From Alphaproteobacteria bacterium (GTDB lineage: Bacteria > Pseudomonadota > Alphaproteobacteria > UBA8366 > GCA-2717185): a stretch of DNA of 64,000 bases. The stretch lies in assembly GCA_028822585.1 (NCBI GenBank), contig JAPKDL010000003.1, positions 1 to 64,000 on the forward strand, written 5' to 3'. The translations under genes were made by a program, and so were the position numbers. Below the pieces are notes generated by a model. It searched no databases. It worked only from the letters and a program-made list of their open reading frames with translations, and was not told the DNA's origin. This document shows, piece after piece, positions 1 to 62,302 of the stretch (its first letter is position 1; every line of letters begins with the position of its first letter).

Positions 1-215
1 GGCGCCGATATTTCCGTACAGGGCATCACCCAAATGCAGCGCCGTATCGAGCGCCATAGCCGGTTGTTCCGCCGCCACGCGGGTCTCATTAAACACACGG
101 GCTTCGTCAACGCTTCCACCGCTGCTTCCAACGCTTCATGGCAAATAAAATCTTCTTCCCGGCCCTTCAAATTAAAGGACGCCAACAATCCATCATCCAC
201 CCAACCGATGCTGCT
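1..215 (-). pseudogene. class III adenylate/guanylate cyclase fragment, apparently frameshifted; runs off the left edge
   Basis: Minus-strand translation gives VDDGLLASFNLKGREEDFICHEALEAAVEAL in one frame and ARVFNETRVAAEQPAMALDTALHLGDALYGNIGA in another. The second resembles the ALHxGDVLYGNIGA segment of class III cyclases. A stop at 136-138 separates the second frame from any upstream start. Confidence 0.45.
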
Positions 216-1419
216 GCAAACGCGGCACCAGTTGCGACGTCGCAACACGGCGCAGACCCGCATCTTCGCTTTTCAGGCAGACCGGATGCAGCGCCAGCAG
301 AAGCCGTCCCGCCGCCGTGCCACCCCAGAACCAATCGGCGAGGTCCTTACTGGTCGCGGTGCCAGGTTTCGCGGTGGCGGCTTCCTGGTACCAGGCCTTG
401 ATCTCCTCGCTCGCTTGACGGAAAGCTTCGCCCAGGGGGGCGTCCGGCTTGGGATTTTCCGGCACGCTGTCTAGAAGCGCGTGTAGAAAACTTGCGATCT
501 CTTCGATGGAAATTCCAACCACACCAGTCGCCGTGCGGCCCCGAGATTCTTCGGCCAATTGGTGCCACGGGGCGAGGCTTTCGATTTCCGCGCGCATCGC
601 CATCAGCAATTCCGGCGTCGTTGTATCCGCCACATTCGCCAACGGAATGGAACAGGTCCAGCCCATCATCCCTTCTTCGGAAATGGCCGCGCCCGGCGCG
701 TCGTCGGGAAAATCCTCCAACACCGGCGACGGGCCATCAAGTTCCAGCAGCGCCAGCGCTGTGCGCAGCACCGTTGTTTGAAATTCAGGTTCGTTTGGCG
801 CGCCAAACGGACGGCCCAGTTCGAACGGAACCCACAGGAAACGCGGCGGGCGCATTCGTTCGGTATTGTCGCGAACCAGACTGATTCCAGTTGTCGCCAG
901 ACCTTCTTCTTCCAGATATTGGGCGGTCGCGCCAACGGCGCGGGTGCAATTTGGTCAGACCGGCACCAGGAGAACCCCATTCACCTGATCCTCTTTCAAC
1001 AACCCCGCGAGTTCACGTGCGGTCGGTTCGATTTCATGGGGATGCCACCCGGCACCGTTCAGCGAATAGTGAAAATCTGCGAGCTCACCAACCTCCCTCG
1101 CCGCCACCAATTCGCGCAGCCGGTCGATGGGGAAGACGACATTCACGTCCTGCTGAAAACCCGTGCGGTCATAATTCACCGAGCTTTGCGTCATCACCAG
1201 ATCGGCGGCATCGATATCGCCGGGGATTACCCGGTAACCCAAATCACGCAGCGCGAAATTACGATCGTCCCGGCGATGCAACCCCGCCGTCGTCACAATC
1301 GCGACGCGGCGTTGCGCCACGGGCGGCCCGGTGACCCAGGGCCGGGCTTCAAACGGCGGACAGTCCTTGTCTATCAAATGCCGCACGCCCACATCGTCAA
1401 GATCGCTTAATTTTACCAT
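193..1419 (-). CDS. GrdB/PrdB-related (glycine/sarcosine/betaine reductase component B-like) family protein; probable selenoprotein with in-frame UGA at 955-957
   Basis: ORFs 955..1419 and 193..855 are in the same frame and joined by a stop-free 99-nt stretch. Read-through gives ...KEDQVNGVLLVPV(U)PNCTRAVGATAQYLEEEGLATTGISLVRDNTERMRPPRFLWVPFELGRPFGAPNEP..., a continuous family-like protein of about 408 aa with a UxxC motif. Confidence 0.85.
928..942 (-). promoter_or_regulatory. candidate bacterial SECIS stem-loop
   Basis: Minus strand after UGA: CCAAAUUGCACC-CGCGCC-GUU-GGCGCG. Perfect 6-bp GC stem, 3-nt loop beginning with G, loop starting 18 nt after UGA. Confidence 0.65.
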
Positions 1420-1699
1420 GAAGAATCGTTAGACTACTAGGGTGCTGGAAACAAGGACGCACCTCCATTAAATTAATTACACTGCCTTGCAAAAAATCAG
1501 GTTGATGCGATGACCGTCCTATTCTGCCTTGAACGGCCCGACCCCATGATAGACCATCCGCGCCGCGCCACCACATCACCGCTTGCCAATGGAATACGGC
1601 GCAGTTTGTCTTTACGGCGCAGCCCACCGAACAAAAACCCTGCGGGGAGCTTCACGGTGTGCCGAATTGACCACCGAACTGATTATGCAGAAGTACGAA

Positions 1700-1854
1700 T
1701 AACCAGTCTGAGCGAGCTTGAGAATACGTTGGCGGTGGTAGTTGTACATACGAACCAAACTGGCGTATGCCAGATATTTCCCGGTCGGCAAGCCAGCAAA
1801 CAAGAACGAAAAAACTATGACGAAGAATTGCGAACAGACTTTGACGCCAAATGA
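1700..1854 (+). pseudogene. BrnT-like toxin C-terminal remnant
   Basis: LENTLAVVVVHTNQTGVCQIFPGRQASKQERKNYDEEL resembles the BrnT C-terminus (…ISAR.AS..ER..YEE). No intact N-terminal half in frame. Confidence 0.5.
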
Positions 1855-60732: not shown

Positions 60733-62079
60733 ATGATGACACGACTCATTTGTTCAGTGGCGGCCTTAGCTGTGCCGCTGTTACTCGGTAACGCACCGGC
60801 AAAAGCTGCGAACGATTCCGAGACACAGGCTATCCTGACGGAAATTCGCGCACTCAAGCAGAGCTATGAAAGCCAAATCACGAAGCTAGAAAAAAAATTC
60901 AGTGAACTCGAAAAATCTACTGCCAGATCAACGGCCAAATCCGCCATCCCGGCGACAAGCGGCCGGGGTGTGCGCGACAATTCCTTCAATCCGTCAATCG
61001 GTGTCATCCTCAATGCCAAGGCAACGACATTCTCGCTCGACGCCTCGGAAATTGCGGGCTTCGGCATCGGCGAAGAAGGAGAGCGTGGCAAAGAGGGACT
61101 TTCACTCGGCGAAACCGAGCTAAACTTCTCGGCCAATGTTGACGACAAATTTTACGGCAGCGGAACGGTGGCTATTGTTCAGGAAGACGGCGAGGACAAG
61201 ATTGAACTCGAGGAAGCCTATATCCAGACACTACCCGATGCGCCTTTGCCGGAAGGTGTACGGATCAAGGCAGGTCGGGCGTTCTGGACGCTTGGATATC
61301 TGAACGACCATCACGCCCATTCCGACGATTTCACAGACCGGCCACTGCCCTATCGCGCATTCCTCAACAAAGCGTTCAACGATGACGGCGTCCAAGTCAC
61401 CTACATCCTACCGACGGACACCTTCGCCGAGCTCGGTGGCGGCGTGTTTCGAGGCGATGACTTTCCGTCCGGCAGCAGCTCGAGCGGACTTGGCGCATGG
61501 TCCGCCTTCGCCCGCGTCGGCGGAGATTTCGGCGACAACCACAGCTGGCGGCTCGGCGGCTATACGCTGCAAAGCGACGTGAACAGCCGCACCTCGAACG
61601 AAGATACGGTAACATTTGCGGGGCAATCGGATCTTTACGCCACCGATTTGCGCTATACATGGGCGCCTACGGGAAATCCCCGGCAGCGCGAACTGATCCT
61701 CCAGGCGGAATATTTTTACCGCGATGAGGATGGCACTTATGCCGATTCTAGCGCCGGAACGGGAAACGTCGCGTTCGATGATGGGTCAAGCGGCTGGTAT
61801 GCGCAGTCCATCTTCAAGTTCTCACCGGCCTGGCGCGCAGGCCTCCGCTACACGCAGCTCGACGCTGCCGACGCGCCAGCGGGACTGGTCGGCAGCGCGC
61901 TCGATTCTTCCGGACACAATCCCTATGCCATGTCGATCATGGGGGATTGGACCAACAGCGAGTTCGGGCGCATCCGGCTGCAATTCAGCCGCGAAGAGTT
62001 GGCTGAAGGCAGGAAAGACAATCAGACCTATCTACAATATGTAATGAGCATTGGTGCCCATGGCGCACATCCGTTTTGA
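60733..62079 (+). CDS. outer-membrane porin-like protein with N-terminal coiled coil
   Basis: Signal peptide (AKAAND), coiled-coil TEIRALKQSYESQITKLEKKFSELEKS, then beta-strand-rich region ending in ...YLQYVMSIGAHGAHPF. Confidence 0.75.
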   Translation: MMTRLICSVAALAVPLLLGNAPAKAANDSETQAILTEIRALKQSYESQITKLEKKFSELEKSTARSTAKSAIPATSGRGVRDNSFNPSIGVILNAKATTFSLDASEIAGFGIGEEGERGKEGLSLGETELNFSANVDDKFYGSGTVAIVQEDGEDKIELEEAYIQTLPDAPLPEGVRIKAGRAFWTLGYLNDHHAHSDDFTDRPLPYRAFLNKAFNDDGVQVTYILPTDTFAELGGGVFRGDDFPSGSSSSGLGAWSAFARVGGDFGDNHSWRLGGYTLQSDVNSRTSNEDTVTFAGQSDLYATDLRYTWAPTGNPRQRELILQAEYFYRDEDGTYADSSAGTGNVAFDDGSSGWYAQSIFKFSPAWRAGLRYTQLDAADAPAGLVGSALDSSGHNPYAMSIMGDWTNSEFGRIRLQFSREELAEGRKDNQTYLQYVMSIGAHGAHPF

Positions 62080-62302
62080 GGTGTCGGCGTCGTTATCGGG
62101 CCAAATTCGCTAATTGCGAACGATAACTTTGCGGGCGAAGCCCGTCTCGCTGCGTAGCCTAGGCTAAGTAGTAAGCACGGTTCGGGGGGTGCCGGGCAAC
62201 AAAACCCCCCACTAATTTAGATGGCTTCGGTCATTTGGTGGTTTGGTTGGCTTCGGCCATTCCGTGATTGAAACGGATTTGGGATATCGCTGGAGACTCA
62301 TG

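What the first reader, a model, noticed from the sequence alone, without database searches (positions are those of the whole stretch)
193..1419. GrdB/PrdB-like selenoprotein hidden as two ORFs split by an in-frame UGA
Seen in sequence: frames 955..1419 and 193..855 (minus) are identical, and the 99 nt between them contain no stop. Read-through gives VLLVPV-U-PNCTRAVGATAQYLEEEGLATTGISLVRDNTERM. Established: GrdB/PrdB-related reductase components carry a redox Sec (or Cys) in a UxxC/CxxC motif at this position. Inference: UGA955-957 encodes Sec. The hallmark redox substrate-binding site in an otherwise housekeeping-type alphaproteobacterial genome suggests an uncharacterised selenium-dependent reductase.
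Basis: partly seen in the sequence, partly recalled or inferred. Interest (0 to 1): 0.8.

Follow-up and report, generated by a model that had tools for sequence, protein, structure and literature searches.

The report
Partner-less PrdB/GrdB-like selenoprotein
A gene that looks like two broken pieces is one complete selenium-containing redox protein, read through an internal UGA codon, of a little-studied family in alphaproteobacteria whose exact reaction is unknown.

Summary
In detail: window 1419..193 (minus) is one frame of 408 residues interrupted only by UGA 957..955. Five tests support selenocysteine (Sec). (1) Nearly all full-length homologs carry UGA at the same codon. (2) Full-length homologs in three genomes without SelB carry Cys at exactly that column. 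(3) The host genome has SelA, SelB, tRNA-Sec and a SelD that itself contains an in-frame UGA. (4) Purifying selection acts on both sides of the UGA. (5) A SECIS-like hairpin starts 12 nt after it (moderate support). The protein is a PrdB/GrdB-type redox domain (motif UPNC) plus a helical C-terminal domain with no Pfam or PDB match. It is not D-proline or glycine reductase proper: it scores far below the PrdB cut-off, and the partner subunit family (PF09338) was not found in the genome. The genome has five family members. In 9 of 20 distant loci the gene lies within 8 kb of selD or selB. 'PrdB' selenoproteins have been known from seawater since 2005, so this is a new variant of a known selenoprotein kind. 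Substrate and electron donor are unknown.

The parts
193..1419 (-). Complete selenoprotein gene: ATG 1419..1417, Sec at residue 155, stop TGA 195..193
   Evidence: the MVRL-type start and the C-terminus are conserved in homologs
955..957 (-). In-frame UGA read as selenocysteine (Sec155)
   Evidence: UGA at this codon in homologs; Cys in full-length homologs of SelB-less genomes
946..948 (-). Cys158 codon, second redox residue of the UPNC (UxxC) motif
   Evidence: Invariant in 34 aligned homologs
928..942 (-). SECIS-like hairpin CGCGC-CGUUG-GCGCG, starting 12 nt after the UGA
   Evidence: 94% of cells paired in 24 homologs but weak covariation; hairpin at the same place in the short paralog family; similar hairpin in the genome's selD
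730..1329 (-). PrdB/GrdB-type redox domain, about residues 31-230
196..627 (-). Helical C-terminal domain, about residues 265-408, absent from PrdB/GrdB and from the short paralogs
853..855 (-). False second start (ATG, residue 189) where gene callers would begin a truncated gene
   Evidence: mostly not Met in homologs

Best explanation
The gene encodes one selenoprotein. SelB delivers Sec-tRNA-Sec to UGA 957..955, helped by the hairpin just downstream, giving a UPNC (UxxC) redox site at the start of a helix (Sec insertion: strongly supported by comparison, not shown by experiment). The protein then acts as a partner-less reductase of the PrdB/GrdB type (inferred): the Sec selenolate attacks an electrophilic substrate atom, Cys158 resolves the intermediate as a selenenyl-sulfide, and a cellular dithiol donor reduces it again. 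The helical C-terminal domain would give substrate binding or subunit contacts in place of the missing PrdA/GrdE-type subunit (speculative). Several diverged paralogs per genome suggest different substrates (speculative).
For: Same-codon UGA in homologs. Cys in full-length homologs of three SelB-less genomes. SelA, SelB, SelD and tRNA-Sec in the same genome. Purifying selection on both sides. Hairpin at a fixed distance in two paralog families with different amino acids. GRDB/PrdB homology. Predicted strand-Sec-helix geometry. Partner family PF09338 not found in the genome although the search finds it in relative G010. Linkage to selD/selB in 9 of 20 distant loci. Five members in the own genome.
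Against: One ortholog (G002) has CGA (Arg) at the codon although that genome has SelB. Covariation of the hairpin does not beat shuffles and the window's own fold is not exceptional. Five UGA-bearing relatives show no SelB above cut-off, though all are 64-88% complete. No direct evidence for substrate, electron donor or catalytic activity.
Confidence: 0.72

Rival explanations
1. It is a genuine D-proline reductase subunit (PrdB), as the 'PrdB' label of seawater sequences implies, working with PrdA to open D-proline.
For: TIGR04483 PrdB is the best family match, E 4.9e-27; UxxC motif shared.
Against: 94.9 bits against a cut-off of 300; PF09338 partner not found in the own genome nor in nearly all relatives; extra C-terminal domain; no common amino-acid reductase neighbourhood.
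Confidence: 0.06
2. It is a Sec-dependent thiol/peroxide redox protein (disulfide reductase or peroxidase) using the UxxC motif like a thioredoxin-type site, with no carbon-heteroatom bond cleavage.
For: UxxC is a typical thiol-redox motif (PMC1794560); the Sec sits before a helix; no partner subunit.
Against: The whole redox domain is conserved with GrdB/PrdB, including residues beyond the UxxC, and these cleave carbon-nitrogen bonds.
Confidence: 0.2
3. The UGA is a nonsense mutation or a sequencing error, and the gene is broken or is two genes.
For: One ortholog has a sense codon, CGA.
Against: Same UGA in independent genomes and paralogs; purifying selection downstream; Sec machinery present; full-length Cys homologs in SelB-less genomes.
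Confidence: 0.02

Closest known systems
D-proline reductase subunit PrdB (TIGR04483)
   Same: Homologous redox domain with UxxC
   Different: Far below the family cut-off; extra C-terminal domain; partner PrdA family not found
Glycine/sarcosine/betaine reductase GrdB, GrdF, GrdH (PF07355)
   Same: Pfam GRDB cut-off met; U-x-x-C-T-R core shared with a GrdB found in relative G010
   Different: Lacks the N-terminal half and the third Cys of UxxCxxC; PF09338 partner not found
'Proline reductase PrdB' selenoproteins of the Sargasso Sea and GOS (PMC1088965, PMC2398784)
   Same: Pfam07355, UxxC, abundant in marine samples; this family is probably part of them (inference, those sequences were not compared here)
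   Different: Named there by similarity to proline reductase; the passages I read mention no extra domain, missing partner or linkage to sel genes

Membership tests
Bacterial selenoprotein | In-frame UGA conserved in homologs, or replaced by Cys | tested here: met
   29 of 32 other long-family genomes in the class search have TGA; the other 3 have Cys and no SelB; exception Arg in G002
Bacterial selenoprotein | SelA, SelB, SelD and tRNA-Sec in the genome | tested here: met
Bacterial selenoprotein | SECIS hairpin just downstream of the UGA | tested here: inconclusive
   Conserved hairpin at a fixed distance, weak covariation
Bacterial selenoprotein | Selenium shown in the protein | not testable with these tools
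   Needs 75Se labelling or mass spectrometry
PF07355 GRDB superfamily | Pfam gathering score | tested here: met
   33.7 bits against 22; all 34 aligned members match at E <= 0.01
D-proline reductase PrdB | NCBIfam equivalog cut-off | tested here: not met
   94.9 bits against 300
D-proline reductase PrdB | Partner subunit PrdA (searched as PF09338) | tested here: not met
   No match in the own genome; one strong match, in G010, among 40 relatives
Glycine/sarcosine/betaine reductase GrdB | UxxCxxC motif and N-terminal half | tested here: not met
   Motif is UPNCTRA and the N-terminal half is missing in the alignment with the G010 GrdB

The most novel reading that the evidence does not exclude
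A distinct class of single-subunit Sec reductase, in which a new helical C-terminal domain replaces the partner subunit of proline/glycine reductase, has spread by duplication in alphaproteobacteria and acts on substrates not yet known.
Probability: 0.4. Interest if true: 0.65.

Novelty: new variant of a known kind. Interest (0 to 1): 0.42.

Why it matters
Standard gene calling splits these genes at the UGA, so the family is easily lost or labelled 'proline reductase'. Showing that it lacks the proline-reductase partner, has its own extra domain and often lies beside selD or selAB turns its true reaction into a direct experimental question about why these bacteria keep the selenocysteine trait. 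Cys homologs from SelB-less bacteria offer an easy route to expression and assay.

Tried and rejected
Rfam SECIS_1 search was uninformative: even the controls did not ring. RNAalifold and pair counts gave only weak support for the hairpin. PDB sequence searches with the protein and the profile found nothing. Foldseek of the whole model and of the C-terminal domain against PDB, and of the whole model against viral structures, gave no significant match. Neighbourhoods in closer relatives (mutS-glnD-murJ-[tandem pair]-trpS-nfu; TauD dioxygenases; an isocitrate/isopropylmalate dehydrogenase family gene) do not point to one pathway. The phylum-wide search found only the own genome, but all genomes it listed were of the same class, so it says little about wider spread. 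Considered and rejected: nonsense mutation, two genes, D-proline reductase proper.

Full report
Observation. The two ORFs 955..1419 and 193..855 on the minus strand share one frame and are joined by 99 open nucleotides; the only internal stop is TGA 957..955. Read through, the frame gives 408 residues from ATG 1419 to TGA 195..193.

Is the UGA a sense codon? Whole-genome searches found full-length homologs at 43-80% identity. In 60 relatives nearly every full-length hit carries one in-frame TGA, at the same codon of the motif P-[VI]-U-P-x-C-T. A class-wide search of 385 genomes gave 32 other genomes with the long form, 29 of them with TGA. The three without it (G179, G389, G185) carry Cys at exactly that column (PVCPNCTR, 42-45% identity), and none of the three has a SelB match. 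In the short paralog family Cys copies occur in SelB-less G014, G016, G031 and G168, but also in G138, which has SelB. The exception in the long family is the G002 ortholog with CGA (Arg), in a 62%-complete genome that has SelB. It could be an assembly error, a mutation or a real variant; I cannot tell.

Machinery. The window's genome (96% complete) has SelA and SelB side by side on contig C247, a 70-bit tRNA-Sec on the same contig, and a SelD on C76 that itself contains an in-frame TGA. Weaker tRNA-Sec matches of about 45-54 bits occur in every genome searched, probably tRNA-Ser (inference). Five UGA-bearing relatives show no SelB above cut-off; they are 64-88% complete.

Selection. Against the 80%-identical relative, dN/dS is 0.09 upstream of the UGA, 0.08 in the 33 codons between the UGA and the false second start, and 0.17 downstream.

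SECIS. A stem-loop CGCGC-CGUUG-GCGCG starts 12 nt after the UGA. In 24 homologs 94% of its cells pair, but covariation does not beat shuffles and the window's own fold is not exceptional. More telling, the short family, with different amino acids, forms a hairpin at the same place. Its Sec copies use AGT for a Ser at which the stem closes, where most Cys copies have AGC and a weaker stem; the genome's own selD has a similar hairpin. I count this as moderate support.

Family and anatomy. Pfam GRDB is met (33.7 bits against 22). TIGR04483 PrdB is the best NCBIfam match, but at 94.9 bits against a cut-off of 300. A GrdB found in relative G010 beside a PF09338 gene shares the U-x-x-C-T-R core with the window's redox domain, but has an N-terminal half and a third Cys that the window protein lacks. 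PF09338 was not found in the window's genome. AlphaFold2 (pLDDT 84.7) puts Sec155 between strand 148-152 and helix 156-171. The C-terminal 150 residues form an all-helical domain predicted with confidence (pLDDT 89), with no Pfam match and no significant PDB fold match.

Genomics. The window's genome holds five family members, three long and two short; relatives hold up to eleven matches. Near relatives show housekeeping or TauD neighbours without a common pathway. In 20 distant loci a SelD-like gene (AIRS, mostly fused to Pyr_redox_2) lies 11-156 nt away in seven, and selB lies within 8 kb in six; together nine of 20 loci. A rough chance estimate expects 0.15 loci; it treats the loci as independent, which related genomes are not. 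Sel genes are also known to cluster with client selenoproteins such as formate dehydrogenase (PMC1794560, PMC5029168), so adjacency supports the Sec reading but does not by itself give a role in selenium metabolism.

Function. Supported here: one conserved gene, Sec at a UxxC site, PrdB/GrdB homology, no known partner, an extra domain. Inferred: a partner-less reductase with a Sec/Cys redox cycle. Unknown: substrate and electron donor.

What is known. 'Proline reductase PrdB' selenoproteins (UxxC; Pfam07355 in the GOS paper) were among the most abundant in the Sargasso Sea (42 genes, PMC1088965) and GOS (235 genes, PMC2398784). This family is probably part of them, but I did not compare the sequences. 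In 2006 formate dehydrogenase was the only selenoprotein seen in the Sec-decoding alphaproteobacteria then sequenced (PMC1794560). I therefore file this as a new variant of a known selenoprotein kind.

Noticed in passing
window 62011-62213 (+): Alphaproteobacterial tmRNA (RF01849, 59.5 bits), missed by ARAGORN.
   Followed up: no
window 1510-1854 (+): Weak BrnT-toxin-like match (E 0.007, below the Pfam cut-off), perhaps a decayed toxin-antitoxin remnant.
   Followed up: partly
window 1 (contig C194 starts here): The contig begins 192 bases downstream of the gene's stop, so its downstream neighbour cannot be seen; some relatives have two tandem copies.
   Followed up: partly
L002 5001-6218, residue 28: A second in-frame TGA where relatives have Trp or Phe; perhaps a sequencing error.
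   Followed up: no
L066 (G010 contig 421): A GrdB-type selenoprotein (UGTCTRCG) beside a PF09338 partner gene and a 400-aa ORF that looks luciferase-like, in an alphaproteobacterial relative.
   Followed up: partly
L053-L056: Two tandem long-form copies lie between murJ and trpS in several genomes of the order.
   Followed up: partly
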